Assembly (NCBI RefSeq): GCF_045679555.1
Contig: NC_092091.1
Span: 67,679,172-67,743,171 of the forward strand
Reading direction: 5' to 3'
Length of the DNA stretch: 64,000 nucleotides
Origin: Salvelinus alpinus
Lineage: Eukaryota > Chordata > Actinopteri > Salmoniformes > Salmonidae
Each line of letters starts with the position of its first letter. Positions within the stretch are counted from its first letter, which is position 1. A program made the position numbers and the translations under genes. Under the pieces are notes generated by a model, which had not been told where the DNA came from, ran no database searches, and saw nothing but the letters and a program-made list of their open reading frames with translations. This document shows positions 2,369-49,005 of this stretch, piece by piece.

Positions 2369-26437
<24,069 letters not shown>

Positions 26438-38390: not shown

Positions 38391-38444
38391 GTGTGGACTG
38401 CTCCCTGATCTTTCCCCTCACAGCTATATAGATCGCCTGCCATC
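38391..38444 (+). other. usp38: usp38 5' UTR segment behind a splice acceptor
   Basis: TCGTCTTTTAG ends at 38390, a good 3' splice site, and the ATG follows 54 nt later in context CCATCATGG. This implies at least one upstream non-coding exon in the shared promoter region. Confidence 0.5.
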
Positions 38445-41400
38445 ATGGACAAGATTCTAGAGGCGCTGGTCAGCTCCTCTCACTCAGTCCCAGTGAAGAA
38501 GGCCATCGTGAAGAAGGTAGTCGAAGCCGCAGAGAAAGAGGTCACGGCGGAGCAATGTCAGGCCCTGTACACCCTCACCACTCGCCTCATCTTCTTGGGC
38601 GAAGACGCCTTCCAGAAACGGGTGGGCTTCCAGGTGCTGGAGGCCTATGCCCGCTACCACCGTGCTGATTTTGAGCTCTTCTTCAGCAAAGACTTTGTCC
38701 TGGGCCTGTTACAGCAGGGCTACGGCCCCCTGGACCGCAAAGACCCGGCCGTGGTCGACTACATCCATGGCTGCCTGCGGCTGCTGATCAGCTGCCCCTC
38801 GGTGCTGGATATCTTCTCCATCATCCAGACAGAAATCCTAAGGATGGTGTGCGAACGGCCTGAGCCAGCCCTGTGCGCCCGTCTTGCCACCATGCTCTCA
38901 GACTTCGTACAGTGCATCCCCCGGGAGAAGGCGGCCATTTTGTTCTGCCAGCAGTTGGTGAGGACCATTGGGTACTTCCACTGTCCGGCCAGCCAGGAGC
39001 AGGAGCTGAGGGAGTACGTGGACCAGGTGACCAAGGTCAGCACGTTGTTGCAGAACATCTGGAAGGCGGAGCCGGTCACACTGCTGCCATCTCTGCAGGA
39101 GGTGTTCGCTATAATCTCCTCCACTGGTGAGACTGAGGGAGGGAGCACCACACACAGTCACAGATGAGCACACACGCACAAATTGCACTGTATGTGTCTA
39201 TGCATCAATGCCCCATACAAGTTGGGGCGGCAGGTAGCCTAGTGGTTAGAGTGTTGGGCCAGTAACCGAAAGGTTGCTACATCGAATCCCCGAACTGACA
39301 AGGTAAAAATCTGTCGTTCTGCCCCTGAACAAGGCAGTTAACCCACTGTTCCCAGGTAGGCCGTCATTGTAAATATGAATTTGCTCTTAACTGACTTGCC
39401 TAGTTAAAGTTTTATAAATCATTTGAACAAAATGAGCAGTTTCAAATACAATATCAATTTTTACTGTACACAAGTAAAGTACACAATAGTATTTTCTAAT
39501 GCAGTCACTAATTTGACCTCCACTTTCGCCCACCTATGGAAAAACTAGGAATGTCAGGCTTGTTAGCACATGCTTGAGACTTGGAACAGTCACTACTTAG
39601 TCATTTTAATGATCCAGGGTGGTGGAGAGTTCATGCACCACTCAATATCAGACTTGAATTGGGTCACTTGGTTAGGGAAGAGGTTGTAAACAAGACATTT
39701 TAATAGAATTGGGACATATTTTATAAGCTGTGGCCCAACAAAACATCAGTCAATTATACTCAAGTTTTTTTGTGTTCTGCACAGACACCTCCTTCGACCC
39801 CTCCATTGCCCTAGCCAGCCTGGTTCAGCACATACCTCTCCAGATGATCACAGTTCTCATCAAGAGCCTTACCACCGACCAGAACGTCAAAGACACCAGC
39901 ATGACTCAAGCACTCTGCAGGTCACTGGGTGCCTTTACTGTGTTTTTTCATTAGCTAAACTGAATAAATGAATCCGTTGTATTTGCGATGTGTATACTAG
40001 ATGGGATGATGGGATGTAGTGATTTAATAGAGCTTTTCTGCCCTTATTTACCGTTCTCTCCATCTCTCTCTTTCCTTCCTCAGGATGATTGACTGGTTGT
40101 CCTGGCCTCTAGCCCACCATGTGGAGATGTGGGTCATTGCCCTGCTGAAGGGACTGGCTGCGGTGCAGAAGTTCACCATCCTCATAGATGTCACCCTGCT
40201 TAAGATTGAACTGGTGGGTAGTGTACTGACCACTATTGGTAGTTACACATGGTAATAGCAAAGACAGTACTCTATATGAAGATGGGCAGAAACTGCTTCT
40301 CCAATAGAAACCTCCGATCACACTTGTGGGCGACGTTGGCAGCTAAGCCCATGCGCAGAAACACGTCATCGTGTCGAACGGTCGTCTAGCGCTGAACTGT
40401 GCATGTGCAGGCCGTCAAATAAAAGGCACTCCTTTGATATAAAGTAGTATTTGACAAAAATGAAAACGAGTCACTTTCACGAGGTTGGAGTAATAACATG
40501 TTCAACTACTGAAGACATTGGCTGGAATCTAGGCTGTGACTTTAGGTTTTGAGACAAGTCACAACTAAGGAACAATTTTTCACTTCTCTCATTGGAGAGA
40601 AGCCTGATCTGTTTCGCAAGCGTTCCCGGAAGTCTTGCGATGTTGCGCCTCTGGGTTTAGAAACTCTGTAGTGATAGCATCTATCACTACAGAGTAACTT
40701 CAGTTAGAACTGAAGATCACATGAACGAAAATGTGTTCCTGTAGTTCATTATGGTGTCTAGCTATATCACTTCTGAATTGTGTGTTTCTGTGTCAGTGTG
40801 TGTACAATAAATATGCTGTATGTTTTATCTTTGTGTGTAGGTATTCAACCGTCTGTGGTACCCCATCGTGCGACAGGGGGCCCTAGTGGTTCTCTCCCAT
40901 ATGCTGCTGAGTTTCCAACACTCTCCTGAGGCCTTCCACTTGGTAAGAAACACACAATACAACTCGTTCTATTGCGCACCGCATGTCTTTCCCTCCCTCA
41001 TTCCCCCTATTTAGCTGAAATACCTTCAGGCTCCATTAAACTCCATTTCCCAGAAGCACTCTCCTCTCAGCAGGGCTCTTCCACTAATGAGGTGTAAAGT
41101 GTTTAAAGCACCATGATGGTCCTTTAGTTGACTGGTGGTGGTTTCATCTGCCATGATTGTCAATTCATTTTAAAAGGTTGATTACATTTAAGTCAGTGTG
41201 ACCCCCCCACCCCCCCATGACAAAAAGGGAGGCTTAATGTAGCATGTCAAGGTTGATGTTTTTACCAGTCACTACATCAGTGTGTTTAGTGCTATTCTGC
41301 TGCTATATGCAGTGCCTAGTTTCCTCCACTGCACCTTTCCACCTTGTAACAGATTAGAACAGCTGTGATGTGCATATGACCAAGAACGTCACTGACTTTG

Positions 41401-44400
41401 CTGATGAGGATAAATTGACGTACCACGACTGTGATGTGTTGGTTGTCTCACCTAGCTGTCTTAGGATGAATGCGCTAACTGTACGTCTGCTCAGCGACTT
41501 TAATGTAAATGTTTGTCTACAATACGTTCAATGTGTGTTCCCCAGGTCGTGCCACACATAGTGGACCTGGTTGAGAGTCTGAAGCGGGACGGCCTGCCCA
41601 CCAGTAAGGCTTTCCTGCTGCACTTCACAGAGCTCGTTCACTGTATGATGTACCAGTACTCTGGCTTCCCTGACCTCTACGACGACATCCTGGAGGCCAT
41701 CAAAGTAAGACACCTTGACAACGAGTGATCACATGAGCGTTGCCCTTTTTTTTAAATGTATCAAACATTTACTGTCCTTTATATTATGATCCACCTGACA
41801 TGGGAGGGGGTGGGTAGGTTTACGTTATTTATGTGACCAACTGTAGTGTTTGTGGCGTCGTGAATAATGTCGTCATTATTGAAGGATAGACCTTTTAAAA
41901 TTCGGAAAGTGTACAATACTATGCAGCTCATGTATAGTAAACGTGGTGTATGGAGTGTCTGAAAGCTATCTCTCTCCCCTCTAGGAGCTACCTGGGCCCG
42001 GTGAGGAGAAGATCAAGCTGGTTCTGAACCAAAGTGCCTGGACGTCCCAGTCCAACTCGTTTGCCTCAGGCCTGCTGAGGCTGCCGGGCAAGTCTGAGAC
42101 GGGCAAGACTGGCCTCATCAACCTGGGAAACACCTGCTACATGAACAGTATCATACAGACACTCTTCTCAGCCACAGAGTGAGTAGTGGATTTAGTATAC
42201 ACACAACTACACGTTGCATTTTTATATTGAATTGACCACATGGTTAACAAAGCTGTCTATGTACATTCTCACTTGAGTCCTCTCACGATAGAATGATATA
42301 ATGCTGTAATATTTATGTAGGAAGTTCCTATGAAATGCTCTGCACTAACTCTTCTATGGTCCTGTCCCAGTTTCAGGAGGCATGTCTTCTCGTTACGTCT
42401 GAATGATGCCACTGCCAACACACTGATGAAGAAACTGCAGCTCCTCTTCACCTTCCTCTCACACACCCAGGTTTGTCTCCCGCTGCTGTTAGTGGCCATC
42501 GGGTTTTTCAATGCAAATGACTATGGATCCATCCCTGACGTTTCGCTTGGTGTGTGTATTCGGTGAGTGGTCATTCAGTTTGTGTGTGTCTCTCCTGCAG
42601 AGGGCAGCGTACGCCCCCAGAGTCTTCTTTGAGGCGTCTCGGCCCCCCTGGTTCAATGCAGGTTCCCAGCAGGACTGTTCTGAGTACCTCCGCTTCCTCC
42701 TGGACAGGTAGTACACCATCTAGTAGACTGCTGGAGCACCCTACAACTCCTTCCTCCTGGACAGGTAGTACACCATCTAGTAGACTGCTGGAGCACCCTA
42801 CAACTCCTTCCTCCTGGACAGGTAGTACACCATCTAGTAGACTGCTGGAGCACCCTACAACTCCTTCCTCCTGGACAGGTAGTACACCATCTAGTAGACT
42901 GCTGGAGCACCCTACAACTCCTTCCTCCTGGACAGGTAGTACACCATCTAGTAGACTGCTGGAGCACCCTACAACTCCTTCCTCCTGGACAGGTAGTACA
43001 CCATCTAGTAGACTGCTGGAGCACCCTACAACTCCTTCCTCCTGGACAGGTAGTACACCATCTAGTAGACTGCTGGAGCACCCTACAACTCCTTCCTCCT
43101 GGACAGGTAGTACACCATCTAGTAGACTGCTGGAGCACCCTACAACTCCTTCCTCCTGGACAGGTAGTACACCATCTAGTAGACTGCTGGAGCACCCTAC
43201 AACTCCTTCCTCCTGGACAGGTAGTACACCATCTAGTAGACTGCTGGAGCACCCTACAACTCCTTCCTCCTGGACAGGTAGTACACCATCTAGTAGACTG
43301 CTGGAGCACCCTACAACTCCTTCCTCCTGGACAGGTAGTACACCATCTAGTAGACTGCTGGAGCACCCTACAACTCCTTCCTCCTGGACAGGTAGTACAC
43401 CATCTAGTAGACTGCTGGAGCACCCTACAACTCCTTCCTCCTGGACAGGTAGTACACCATCTAGTAGACTGCTGGAGCACCCTACAACTCCTTCCTCCTG
43501 GACAGGTAGTACACCATCTAGTAGACTGCTGGAGCACCCTACAACTCCTTCCTCCTGGACAGGTAGTACACCATCTAGTAGACTGCTGGAGCACCCTACA
43601 ACTCCTTCCTCCTGGACAGGTAGTACACCATCTAGTAGACTGCTGGAGCACCCTACAACTCCTTCCTCCTGGACAGGTAGTACACCATCTAGTAGACTGC
43701 TGGAGCACCCTACAACTCCTTCCTCCTGGACAGGTAGTACACCATCTAGTAGACTGCTGGAGCACCCTACAACTCCTTCCTCCTGGACAGGTAGTACACC
43801 ATCTAGTAGACTGCTGGAGCACCCTACAACTCCTTCCTCCTGGACAGGTAGTACACCATCTAGTAGACTGCTGGAGCACCCTACAACTCCTTCCTCCTGG
43901 ACAGGTAGTACACCATCTAGTAGACTGCTGGAGCACCCTACAACTCCTTCCTCCTGGACAGGTAGTACACCATCTAGTAGACTGCTGGAGCACCCTACAA
44001 CTCCTTCCTCCTGGACAGGTAGTACACCATCTAGTAGACTGCTGGAGCACCCTACAACTCCTTCCTCCTGGACAGGTAGTACACCATCTAGTAGACTGCT
44101 GGAGCACCCTACAACTCCTTCCTCCTGGACAGGTAGTACACCATCTAGTAGACTGCTGGAGCACCCTACAACTCCTTCCTCCTGGACAGGTAGTACACCA
44201 TCTAGTAGACTGCTGGAGCACCCTACAACTCCTTCCTCCTGGACAGGTAGTACACCATCTAGTAGACTGCTGGAGCACCCTACAACTCCTTCCTCCTGGA
44301 CAGGTAGTACACCATCTAGTAGACTGCTGGAGCACCCTACAACTCCTTCCTCCTGGACAGGTAGTACACCATCTAGTAGACTGCTGGAGCACCCTACAAC

Positions 44401-47400
44401 TCCTTCCTCCTGGACAGGTAGTACACCATCTAGTAGACTGCTGGAGCACCCTACAACTCCTTCCTCCTGGACAGGTAGTACACCATCTAGTAGACTGCTG
44501 GAGCACCCTACAACTCCTTCCTCCTGGACAGGTAGTACACCATCTAGTAGACTGCTGGAGCACCCTACAACTCCTTCCTCCTGGACAGGTAGTACACCAT
44601 CTAGTAGACTGCTGGAGCACCCTACAACTCCTTCCTCCTGGACAGGTAGTACACCATCTAGTAGACTGCTGGAGCACCCTACAACTCCTTCCTCCTGGAC
44701 AGGTAGTACACCATCTAGTAGACTGCTGGAGCACCCTACAACTCCTTCCTCCTGGACAGGTAGTACACCATCTAGTAGACTGCTGGAGCACCCTACAACT
44801 CCTTCCTCCTGGACAGGTAGTACACCATCTAGTAGACTGCTGGAGCACCCTACAACTCCTTCCTCCTGGACAGGTAGTACACCATCTAGTAGACTGCTGG
44901 AGCACCCTACAACTCCTTCCTCCTGGACGGGTAGTACACCATCTAATAGACTGCTGGAGCACCCTACAACTCCTTCCTCCTGGACAGGTAGTACACCATC
45001 TAGTAGACTGCTGGAGCACCCTACAACTCCTTCCTCCTGGACAGGTAGTACACCATCTAGTAGACTGCTGGAGCACCCTACAACTCCTTCCTCCTGGACA
45101 GGTAGTACACCATCTAGTAGACTGCTGGAGCACCCTACAACTCCTTCCTCCTGGACAGGTAGTACACCATCTAGTAGACTGCTGGAGCACCCTACAACTC
45201 CTTCCTCCTGGACAGGTAGTACACCATCTAGTAGACTGCTGGAGCACCCTACAACTCCTTCCTCCTGGACAGGTAGTACACCATCTAGTAGACTGCTGGA
45301 GCACCCTACAACTCCTTCCTCCTGGACAGGTAGTACACCATCTAGTAGACTGCTGGAGCACCCTACAACTCCTTCCTCCTGGACAGGTAGTACACCATCT
45401 AGTAGACTGCTGGAGCACCCTACAACTCCTTCCTCCTGGACAGGTAGTACACCATCTAGTAGACTGCTGGAGCACCCTACAACTCCTTCCTCCTGGACAG
45501 GTAGTACACCATCTAGTAGACTGCTGGAGCACCCTACAACTCCTTCCTCCTGGACAGGTAGGTACACCATCTAGTAGACTGCTGGAGCACCCTACAACTC
45601 CTTCCTCCTGGACAGGTAGTACACCATCTAGTAGACTGCTGGAGCACCCTACAACTCCTTCCTCCTGGACAGGTAGTACACCATCTAGTAGACTGCTGGA
45701 GCACCCTACAACTCCTAAAACCTGTGACTCCAGGTATAGATGGAAAGAATGTATGTATAAATCTAGTGTTTTGAGAGAAGGATTTTAATAAGTTAAAGAA
45801 TTCATGTTCACTCGAATGGGTGTTATTGAAAAGGACAGCTCCATTTATTATGCTGTTACATTCATTTGCAAGTTGTATTTTTGGTTGAGCTTTCTCTTGT
45901 TTCCTCGTGTTCTGTTGCCAAGGTTACACGAAGAGGAGAAAACCATCCAGGTTCTCATGTCAGCCAAGCCAAATGTTGTCTCCCCTGGCAACGGACCGAG
46001 CGACGACACCGGGGGTGAAACCTCTGCGGAGGATGCCGGAGTGTCACCCGTGGCTCCTGTGGAGGGGAAGTCTGAGGGGAATGACGAGAGGACGCTGATT
46101 GAGAGGATGTTTGGAGGCAGGCTGAGCACGGGTATCCGCTGTATGACATGCAACAGCGTCTCGGAGAAAGAAGAACCTTTCACTGACCTATCCCTGGCCT
46201 TCTGTCCCTCCACCACCTCCAGCCCTCTTCAGACCGAGGGCCCCTCAGAGGAACCCCGGGGCCCCTGCCAGGGGGCTGTCAACGGGGGCAGCGAGACTCC
46301 TGAAATAGGCCCTTCTCCCAAACCCGTCACGGCCTCCACCACCGGCGTCCATTTTGTTCCAGGGTCCAGCGAGCCACCGCTGTCTGTTCCTGACCTGGTG
46401 GACTACTTCCTGGCGCCAGAGATCCTGGACAAAGAGAACGCCTACTTCTGCCAGAAGTGTGGCTCGCTGCAGCGGGCGGAGCGGGGGATGAGGGTGGTGG
46501 CGGCGCCCGAGTACCTCATCCTCACGCTGCTGAGGTTCTCCTACGACGCCAAGTGCCACGTGCGCCGCAAGATTCTGGACAACGTCACCATCCCGCCGCT
46601 CATGAGACTGCCCGTGCACGCCCCTCCACCCAAACACTCTTCGTCCTCTTCCTCGCCACCATCCTCTCCACTCCAAGTGGACTCACCCGTGAGCAGCGAA
46701 AACCTGGCCAAGAAACTGAAGCCGTCGCAGAGAGATGAGGAGGAGACTGGGCTAGAGGGCGACAACGGGATGGCAGGAGGAGAAAGTGAGGTAGGGGTGT
46801 GGCCGGCAGCCCAGTTCGTTCCCTACGTCCTCAGCTCTGTAGTGATGCATTCTGGGATGTCGTCGGAGAGCGGCCATTACTACTCATACGGCCGCAACCT
46901 CAACGGTGCCGACGGAGCCCAACACCACCTAGCCAATCGCCTCGCCCTGGGGGAGGAGCCTGGGAACGGGCAGACTGAGCCCATCGCACTCACTTGCTCC
47001 GGGGCGACTCATCCCAAACAGGATGTGGAGGAGGTGTGCGGAGGCCAGGCGGCCGGCGATTGGCTGCTGTTCAACGACAGCAGGGTGACGTTCACTTCGT
47101 TGGGGTCGGTTCAGAACGTCACCAACCGTTTCCCCAAGGACACGGCCTACGTGCTGATCTACCGGAAACAGGACGTTACCGGGGGGCAGAACAGTACTGG
47201 GGGAGTGACGGCAAACGGCATGAGACTGGGCTCTGAACCTCCGCTGCAGAAAGAACTGATGGATGCCGTCACCAAGGACAACAAGCTCTTTTTACAGGTG
47301 AGAGAAGGGGGTGTGAGGAGTTACAGTATAGTGAATGAGGCATGTTCTGTTTGCTCGTGTTTATCCAAGTGCTCTACTCACTTTCATTTACAGTATGTTC

Positions 47401-49005
47401 ATTTTTGGTTTGAAACCTTAAAAAGGAAATCGTCTCTTTAGTTATCAGTGCAATTTTTTGTTTCATCGAATTAACTCTTAAATTGTTGACGTAAGCAGCC
47501 TCTTCCATTGGCTTTACAAGTAGGACAAGCCTCACCTTTGACCCCCACCCTCTTAACCATTAGAGGGCAACAACCCATATTATAATAATCTACTTTCATC
47601 TCTCTCTCCATGACCAGTTTTAGATAACAGGGTAGCAGAAGGGTGAAAATCCGATTCACTCAAACCAATTATCTCTATATAAAAAGCCCTCCAGTCCCAC
47701 CCTGTGTCGGAGCCTGTCATTTCTGTCACTAAATGCAGGCCAAGGAGGGGTGACGCAGCCATTAGCATAACCGTTTAGTGTGATCCTGACCTAAATGATG
47801 CATCAGGCTATGCTAATGTATTGGCCCAGGGAAGTGGAATGTGTTCACTTATGATCACGCTAGCCTCCAATAACCTTCCTCTAATTGCTTGATTAGCATG
47901 GGACGCTGAGGTGCATGCGTATTTACATTTTAGTCATTTAGCAGACGCTTTTCTCCTGAGCAACTTACAATTAATGCATTCATCTTAAGATAGCTAGTGC
48001 GGCTTGGTTGGGTTGTGCTTCGGAGGACGCATGACTTTCGACCTTCGTCTCTCCCGAGCCCGTACGGGAGTTGTAGCGATGAGACAAGATAGTAATTACT
48101 AGCGATTGGATACCACGAAAAATTGGGGAGAAAAGGGGATAACATTTATTTAAAAAAAATTTTTTAAAAAAAATATATAATAATAATAATTATGTCCCCC
48201 CCACGTCTAAAACCAAAGTTGCACCCCTGGTTATCAGCAAAGTCAGTGATGGTGGGGAAAATAAGTTTTTTTTGTTTGTTGTGGGGGTGGCATCGGTATG
48301 TCAGACATGTTTCCATATTCTTCAGGGTATTTCTGGTAATGTCAAGTCACGCTTTTCTCTTCTCTTTTGGACTTGTTTTTGGAATTTGTTCTTTCAACTT
48401 GTGCCCATGTTCAAAATTTAACAGGACCCTGTTTTCCATGTATCCATTAACAGGATTAAAGTACTTCTGAACCAGCTTTGATCAAAACATGTTGCAAGTA
48501 TTCAGAAAGGCAACCATACACATGTTACACATTTCCCTTGTGTTTTCAAGATGCAATTAGTCAAGTGAAATTTCATGAGTCGTTAATCTCTCAAAAAAAC
48601 AAGACTTCAACCACACATTTGCAGTAACCACTAGAGGACAGCAGAGCTGCATTTTCTTGCTCAGACAGAATACCCAAACTCCTGGGTCATGCTCATTAGG
48701 ACAGGCAACATTTTAAACCGTTCTGCAATGGAAAATTAAACTCCAGGTAGTCCCTGCCTGTTTCTGTTTTCTTCTATTTGGTCCCTAATGAACGACCCTC
48801 TGAACAGTGTTTAATGGTCCCGAACTCCTTTGTCCAATAGGAACAGGAACTGAACGCGCGGACCCGAGCTCTCCAGGCGGCCTCTGCCTCCTGCTCGTTC
48901 AGGCCCAACGGACCAGACGACAACGAACCCCCGGGCAGCTGTGGTCCCTCGGGGGGAGGAGGAGGAGGTGGGGGGTTCAACACTGTCAACAGACTGGTCT
49001 TCTGA
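38445..49005 (+). CDS. usp38: USP38 ubiquitin-specific protease (complete, 10 coding exons)
   Basis: Cysteine deubiquitinase of the USP (C19) family. Exons: 38445-39126, 39785-39920, 40084-40213, 40841-40942, 41546-41704, 41985-42178, 42371-42470, 42601-42707, 45923-47297, 48841-49005; together 1049 aa (human 1042). Residues 1-400 form an alpha-helical N-terminal region. The Cys box LINLGNTCYMNS puts the catalytic Cys at residue 454, the position known for human USP38. Exon 9 carries paired zinc-ribbon cysteines (CMTC, CQKC), the His box (MSSESGHYYSYGRN) and the downstream Asp/Asn motif (WLLFNDSRVT). The C-terminus is Gly-rich and ends FNTVNRLVF. The 3.2-kb intron after exon 8 is nearly filled by a 57-bp minisatellite derived from the exon-8 end. 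Confidence 0.96.
39224..39408 (+). mobile_element. HpaI-type salmonid SINE
   Basis: It starts GGGGCGGCAGGTAGCCTAGT, with tRNA-like A- and B-box spacing (GGTTGCTACATCGAATCCCC), then the middle part with CTGAACAAGGCAGTTAACCC and the tail ATTTGCTCTTAACTGACTTG. This is the diagnostic HpaI family of salmonids, located in usp38 intron 1, sense orientation. Best single marker for host lineage. Confidence 0.9.
40663..40715. repeat. Two adjacent perfect hairpins in usp38 intron 3
   Basis: ACTCTGTAGTGATAG at 40663-40677 is exactly inverted at 40681-40695 with a 3-nt loop (CAT). CTTCAGTT at 40698-40705 is inverted at 40708-40715 with a 2-nt loop (AG). They may be the core of a dispersed element covering roughly 40310-40720, whose borders I cannot define. 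Confidence 0.7.
42693..45716. repeat. 57-bp minisatellite, about 53 copies, seeded from the usp38 exon 8 end and 5' splice site
   Basis: The unit is TAGTACACCATCTAGTAGAC, TGCTGGAGCACCCTACAACT, CCTTCCTCCTGGACAGG. The first match starts inside usp38 exon 8 (TTCCTCCTGGACAG ends the exon at 42707), so each unit repeats the last coding bases plus the donor GTAGTA. The array from 42709 is 52 full units, one with an extra G, plus 43 bp. Copies are almost identical: variants seen are ACGGG near 44937, CTAATAG near 44943 and the inserted G at about 45561. Unit length is a multiple of three, so two minus frames and one plus frame stay open by chance for 1000 codons; these are not genes. Confidence 0.95.
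47937..48150 (+). mobile_element. SINE fragments (composite)
   Basis: The left part carries the teleost motif TTAGCAGACGCTTTTC; the right part from about 47995 matches the tail of the SINE at 1550-1990 (GGTTGTGCTTCGGAGGACGC through AAATTGGGGAGAAAAGGGG). In usp38 intron 9. Confidence 0.65.

What the first reader, a model, noticed from the sequence alone, without database searches (positions are those of the whole stretch)
42693..45716. A 3-kb minisatellite that multiplies the usp38 exon 8 5' splice site about 53 times
The 57-bp unit contains the last 15 coding bases of exon 8 (TTCCTCCTGGACAG) plus the donor GTAGTA, and the array starts inside the exon. The true donor at 42708 is thus the first of about 53 near-identical candidates at 57-bp spacing. 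Moving to any later donor would add a TAG directly after the exon's last codon (GAC AGG TAG), so wrong choice truncates the protein before the His box. Near-perfect copy identity implies recent expansion or strong homogenisation. Copy number could tune usp38 output.
Basis: partly seen in the sequence, partly recalled or inferred. Interest (0 to 1): 0.78.

Follow-up and report, generated by a model that had tools for sequence, protein, structure and literature searches.

The report
Fish minisatellite repeating a splice site
In a fish ubiquitin-protease gene a 57-letter piece that includes the end of one exon and its splice signal has been copied in tandem 53 times, a natural test of how cells choose among identical splice sites, though such repeats look common in this genome and no effect on the gene has been shown.

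Summary
In detail: 42693-45716 is 53 copies of a 57-bp unit, 50 identical, starting 15 bases inside usp38 exon 8. The donor at 42708 is supported by gap-free homology to USP35 across the exon 8/9 junction. Using any later donor adds an in-frame TAG.

Units wrongly kept still begin with a donor and end with an acceptor, so re-splicing could restore the right mRNA. The unit lacks a T-N-A branch-point core and is only 57 nt, so acceptor use is uncertain.

Most likely this is a recently amplified minisatellite in a minisatellite-rich genome. No second usp38 copy was found. A second array (14881-15217) also spans a donor.

Closest known: the human CBS 31-bp exon-intron VNTR and the UBC dual-site array. 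Tuning by copy number is possible but untested; no RNA, population or related-fish data could be examined.

The parts
42601..42707 (+). usp38 exon 8 (107 nt); its last 15 bases are the first 15 bases of the repeat unit
   Evidence: open frame and splice-compatible ends; USP35 homology through it
42693..45716 (+). 57-bp minisatellite, 53 copies, 50 identical
42708..42709 (+). true 5' splice site of exon 8 (CAG|GTAGTA), first of 53 unit GTs
42745..42766 (+). first internal unit boundary, readable as acceptor and donor (CTCCTTCCTCCTGGACAG|GT); repeated in register through the array
   Evidence: acceptor score 4.5 against 2.4 for the real exon 9 acceptor, with recalled human matrices
44916..44972 (+). 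variant unit 40: CGG|GTAGTA (AG lost, GT kept)
45543..45600 (+). variant unit 51: inserted G gives donor CAG|GTAGGT at 45558, best U1 pairing (-13.2) of 11 usp38 sites compared; matrix score 6.18, second to the exon 9 donor at 6.47
42708..45922 (+). intron 8, 3215 nt; 250 nt if only one unit were present
45923..47297 (+). usp38 exon 9, with SGHYYSY at 46869; followed by a donor at 47298
14881..15217 (+). second donor-spanning array in the window: 94 bp x 3.6 over the end of a Calx-beta exon (FREM-like, label recalled), GACC|GTGAGT at 14924, 15018, 15112; fourth copy has GACCATGAA

Best explanation
A 57-bp segment across the end of usp38 exon 8 (15 coding bases, the donor and 42 intron bases) was duplicated in tandem and recently amplified to 53 copies, as many minisatellites in this genome have been. 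Because the segment contains CAG|GT behind a pyrimidine-rich stretch, amplification made a ladder of candidate dual-specific splice sites. I think correct usp38 mRNA is still made, for two reasons. First, the true donor bounds a short exon (107 nt), while later donors would need exons of up to about 3.1 kb. Second, a run of units left in by a wrong choice still starts with a donor and ends with an acceptor, so a further splice would restore the same junction. A minority of transcripts probably keep units, meet the TAG at once and are predicted targets of nonsense-mediated decay. Shown: anatomy, identity of copies, reading frame, junction homology, no second usp38 found. Inferred: use of the sites, re-splicing, exon-length preference, decay.
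For: Array and copy identity. A 993-codon usp38 frame over nine exons has no stop when 42708 joins 45923 (exon ends chosen by me from frame and matrices); USP35 (PDB 5txk) aligns without a gap across that junction, EYLKYLLDRLHEEEKT. The donor pairs with U1 with a one-base bulge on the U1 side at -8.8 kcal/mol, stronger than 6 of the 8 other usp38 donors; the array acceptor scores above 3 of 8 true usp38 acceptors. Outside the array 1.9% of 8393 AG sites on both strands score as high, 20 of 509 AGGT and 3 of 31 CAGGTA. Toy model with all sites equal, 200 runs per setting: donors alone give the correct mRNA in 0.5-5% of runs; with AG|GT sites and unlimited re-splicing 100%; about 60% if 57-nt introns cannot be removed. 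Background: 20 stretches of 10 kb hold 76 arrays covering 77.9 of 200 kb, 4 of them with period 20-120, at least 20 copies and at least 97% matches. Dual-specific sites in tandem repeats are documented (PMC10809524).
Against: The unit has no T-N-A branch-point core at all; 36 of 1069 other window 57-mers and 1.5% of shuffled units lack it too. A single unit (57 nt) is shorter than usual vertebrate introns (recalled). The exon junction complex represses re-use of regenerated donors (PMC6224609, abstract). The donor is weak by position matrix (1.1; 1 of the 8 other usp38 donors is lower), and unit 51 has a better U1 match than the true donor. Folding gives no reason for the first donor to be preferred: accessibility 0.36 against 0.38-0.44. 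In the toy model, if splicing always stops once exon 9 is joined the correct fraction is 2.5-37%, and with a 50% chance of stopping 14.5-52.5%. None of the sampled arrays with at least 20 copies is as pure as this one (best 98%), so it is at the pure end of its kind. No RNA was seen.
Confidence: 0.45

Rival explanations
1. Inert bystander: only the first donor and the exon 9 acceptor are ever used; the array is silent intron sequence.
For: Arrays are common in the sampled genome. The unit lacks a T-N-A branch core. The usp38 frame is intact and no second copy was found, so correct splicing presumably works.
Against: Most internal donors match the true donor in the 15 exon bases before it and the whole unit after it (50 of 53 units identical), so nothing that close distinguishes them; predicted folding does not either.
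Confidence: 0.4
2. Copy number tunes usp38: more units raise the share of TAG-containing, decayed transcripts, so array length sets output.
For: Every retained unit puts TAG directly in frame and at least 53 nt before the next junction. A human boundary VNTR exists in CBS (PMC2630376, passages; the title of Lievers 2001 in its reference list reports association with reduced activity).
Against: No polymorphism, expression or RNA data available; re-splicing of AG|GT units would cancel the effect.
Confidence: 0.12
3. Assembly artefact or inflated copy number.
For: Near-identity over 3 kb of repeat is what mis-assembly can produce; no reads could be examined.
Against: The array sits at one place in a 101-Mb contig; variant units 40 and 51 are interior and differ from each other; no N in the window.
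Confidence: 0.05

Closest known systems
Human CBS 31-bp VNTR, c.1444_1467+7(16_21)
   Same: A tandem repeat whose unit spans the exon end and the donor (24 exonic and 7 intronic bases by its name; PMC2630376, passages)
   Different: 31 bp and 16-21 copies there, known to be polymorphic; 57 bp and 53 copies here, polymorphism unknown
UBC polyubiquitin tandem dual-specific splice sites (and VCX3A), PMC10809524
   Same: Repeat boundaries are AG|GT and the unit length is a multiple of three, so units could be removed exactly
   Different: UBC units are coding and retained units add protein; here a retained unit adds a stop. Intron 8 is not a whole number of units, its acceptor lies outside the array, and use as a 3' splice site is not shown
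[quoted passage not shown]
   Same: A duplicated splice junction from which, by that paper, normal mRNA is made because one copy is strongly favoured
   Different: A single extra copy at the other end of an intron; no array
Recursive splicing (PMC6224609 and PMC10156609, abstracts)
   Same: A junction that regenerates a donor
   Different: No RNA evidence here; the sites are repeats, not single points
Intron gain by tandem duplication of an AGGT segment (model described in the abstract of PMC4974935)
   Same: Tandem copies of a segment with AG|GT give new GT...AG introns
   Different: Here the duplication lies at an existing boundary and adds to an existing intron

Membership tests
Minisatellite | Head-to-tail copies of a unit of tens of bases | tested here: met
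   57 bp x 53
Exon-intron boundary VNTR (CBS type) | Unit contains exon end and functional donor | tested here: met
   15 exon bases, GT at 42708, junction homology; function inferred from homology
Exon-intron boundary VNTR (CBS type) | Copy number varies among individuals | not testable with these tools
   one assembly only
Tandem dual-specific splice-site array (UBC type) | AG|GT in register in the units | tested here: met
   52 of 53 units
Tandem dual-specific splice-site array (UBC type) | Intron embedded in the repeat with length a multiple of the unit | tested here: not met
   intron 8 is 3215 nt and ends outside the array; only hypothetical internal introns would meet it
Tandem dual-specific splice-site array (UBC type) | Same site used as 5' and 3' splice site in RNA | not testable with these tools
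   no RNA data
Recursive splicing | Stepwise removal with regenerated donor, seen as lariats or intermediates | not testable with these tools
   no RNA data
Recursive splicing | Branch point upstream of the AG | tested here: inconclusive
   pyrimidine-rich stretch present, no T-N-A core in the unit
usp38 | Usp38-like N-terminal domain and USP catalytic core | tested here: met

The most novel reading that the evidence does not exclude
The array is a 53-step ladder of dual-specific sites, in a gene with no second copy found, through which the spliceosome removes intron 8 in random multiples of 57 nt, self-correcting wrong donor choices, with array length setting how often transcripts fail and decay: a heritable splicing rheostat made by a minisatellite.
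Probability: 0.12. Interest if true: 0.78.

Novelty: new member of a known kind. Interest (0 to 1): 0.45.

Why it matters
How a spliceosome picks one donor among dozens of identical ones, and whether regenerated sites are re-spliced or blocked by the exon junction complex, is usually studied with constructs (recalled). This locus offers about 50 identical candidates at fixed spacing in one native gene, with two marked variant units (40 and 51) as internal labels. It also suggests how repeat growth at an exon edge may be tolerated when the unit carries AG|GT.

Tried and rejected
Exact 21-mer scans of viral contigs and genome contigs found nothing, as expected for a fish sequence. RNA structure as a guide to the first donor: rejected, accessibilities are alike; the folded two-unit sequence is 1.8 standard deviations below 300 shuffled units, not notable. 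Ohnologue comparison: no second usp38 among 40 scored candidates. Donor-spanning arrays as a clear excess in this window: 2 of 18 arrays, expected 0.28-0.55 with an assumed 30-60 donors (not annotated), P 0.03-0.11, counted after seeing them, so only suggestive; the 18 were hand-listed, and two arrays that one search also keeps (12 bp at 1362, 20 bp at 12611) were left out. Survey of arrays at exon ends elsewhere in the genome through Pfam PF00041 and PF00069: not completed. In 12 exon loci already held (L039-L050, one of them, L043, inside the window), none had an array of period 15 or more over the match. Literature: the CBS VNTR was recalled first and then searched for; searches gave the CBS, UBC and tandem-duplication papers and, in their listed titles, no fish case; usp38 with salmon (31 papers, 8 listed) had no title on this. 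A search on bulged U1 pairing found no paper. Splice matrices and the U1 and U2 letters were recalled, human-like and not tuned to fish.

Full report
What is there. The array at 42693-45716 is real: 53 units of 57 bp, 50 identical. It begins 15 bases before the end of a 107-nt exon and continues for 3009 bases of the intron. A two-unit, 105-base query matches at one place in the 2.37-Gb genome that holds the window, contig C6, with the reservation that one candidate was scored and very common words are skipped. At the joins the exon side reads CCG|CTTCC, the unit join ACTC|CTTCC and the far end ACTC|CTAAA, so the first duplication need have used only about two shared bases (inference).

The gene. 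Nine exons, whose ends I chose from frame and splice matrices, give 993 open codons with Usp38-like_N and UCH domains. The protein aligns to USP35 (PDB 5txk) without a gap where exon 8 meets exon 9, which supports 42708 as donor and 45923 as acceptor. NTCYMN (Cys box) lies upstream at 42129 and SGHYYSY (His box) in exon 9 at 46869 (box names recalled). Use of any later donor keeps G-TAG and so ends the protein after FLLDR; the TAG lies at least 53 nt before the resulting junction, so decay is predicted. A protein search of the whole genome found usp38 only here: 9 matches, all in this locus, from 40 scored candidates. The FREM-like exon has relatives at 80-81% on C22 and C21 and the SMARCA-like exon at 82% on C13 and C1, pairs that would fit a duplicated genome; gene labels are recalled and the species was not identified.

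The unit carries CTCCTTCCTCCTGGACAG before each GT. With recalled human matrices the internal boundary scores 4.5 as an acceptor, against 2.4, 3.1 and 4.0 for three of the eight usp38 acceptors and 5.6 to 11.6 for the other five. Outside the array about 1.9% of 8393 AGs reach it. So 52 of 53 boundaries are AG|GT, of the dual-specific type. This changes the logic: if donor k joins exon 9, the k-1 units left behind still start with the true donor and end with the acceptor of unit k, so one more splice gives the correct message. In a toy model with equal sites, 200 runs per setting, the correct product rises from 0.5-5% (donors only) to 100% when re-splicing is unlimited; it is about 60% if 57-nt introns cannot be removed, 14.5-52.5% with a 50% chance of stopping per further step once exon 9 is joined, and 2.5-37% if splicing then always stops. 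The model shows what the sequence allows, not what the cell does.

Points against. The unit has no T-N-A branch core, which 36 of 1069 other window 57-mers also lack. Donor strength is modest by matrix (1.1; 1 of 8 other usp38 donors is lower) though fair by U1 pairing with a bulge (-8.8 kcal/mol; stronger than 6 of 8). Unit 51 has the best U1 match of the 11 usp38 sites compared (-13.2) and a matrix score of 6.18, second to 6.47 for the exon 9 donor among sites scoring at least 5 in 38401-48200; if donors competed freely it should be favoured and would keep 50 units. Predicted folding does not set the first donor apart. The exon junction complex is known to block regenerated donors (PMC6224609, abstract only).

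How ordinary it is. In 20 stretches of 10 kb from the same genome (fixed positions at 5, 15 and 25 Mb of six contigs and 5 and 15 Mb of a seventh, not random; 2696 N) TRF gave 76 non-overlapping arrays of period 10-120 covering 77.9 kb, 36 of them with at least 8 copies. Four have period 20-120, at least 20 copies and at least 97% matches, one of them 3.5 kb long at 98%; none with at least 20 copies reaches the 99% of the usp38 array. Long, fairly pure arrays are therefore common, and some will straddle exon ends. A second one does so in this window: 94 bp x 3.6 at 14881-15217 repeats the end of a Calx-beta exon with GACC|GTGAGT three times, and the fourth copy reads GACCATGAA. That unit has no AG at the donor, so it would not be self-correcting in the same way. 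A related exon on C21 (L040) has a 40-bp array of at least 34 copies starting about 140 bp downstream of the exon's donor; its unit matches the exon end and donor in 24 of 29 bases, reached by 0 of 2000 shuffles and 0 of 500 other 29-mers of that locus. The C22 relative (L039) shows one such copy in the stretch printed and no such array.

Place among known things. The human CBS 31-bp VNTR, c.1444_1467+7(16_21), spans an exon end and donor (PMC2630376, passages; the primary report was not held). [quoted passage not shown] The present case is a boundary repeat with more copies than the CBS alleles listed there, and its unit also has UBC-like AG|GT joins; it fails the UBC criterion that the intron be a whole number of units. 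I file it as a new member of a known kind, the boundary repeat (length variation untested), with a possible dual-site behaviour that needs RNA.

Noticed in passing
14881-15217: A second minisatellite (94 bp x 3.6) also spans a donor, at the end of a Calx-beta exon of a FREM-like gene; three intact GTGAGT donors, fourth copy ATGAAT.
   Followed up: partly
L040 1850-3210 (own genome C21): A related exon has a 40-bp array of at least 34 copies (cut by the end of the locus) about 140 bp downstream of its donor; the unit resembles that exon end and donor (24 of 29 bases) and carries GTGAGT; the C22 relative shows one copy.
   Followed up: partly
8041-9717: 48-bp x 35 array, open over 580 codons on the + strand (unit peptide [16 protein letters not shown]); coding status unknown.
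   Followed up: no
42539-45788: Because 57 is a multiple of three, several frames on both strands stay open for about 1000 codons through the array; probably meaningless.
   Followed up: no
5392-6158 and 13160-14159: Frames that look like Tc1-type transposase remnants (label recalled, no search made).
   Followed up: no
42688-42708: The end of exon 8 itself scores 6.2 as an acceptor, so the true AG|GT join could be dual-specific without any repeat.
   Followed up: partly
own genome, 20 sampled 10-kb stretches (L018-L037): Tandem arrays cover 77.9 of 200 kb, a very high share, though sampling was not random.
   Followed up: partly
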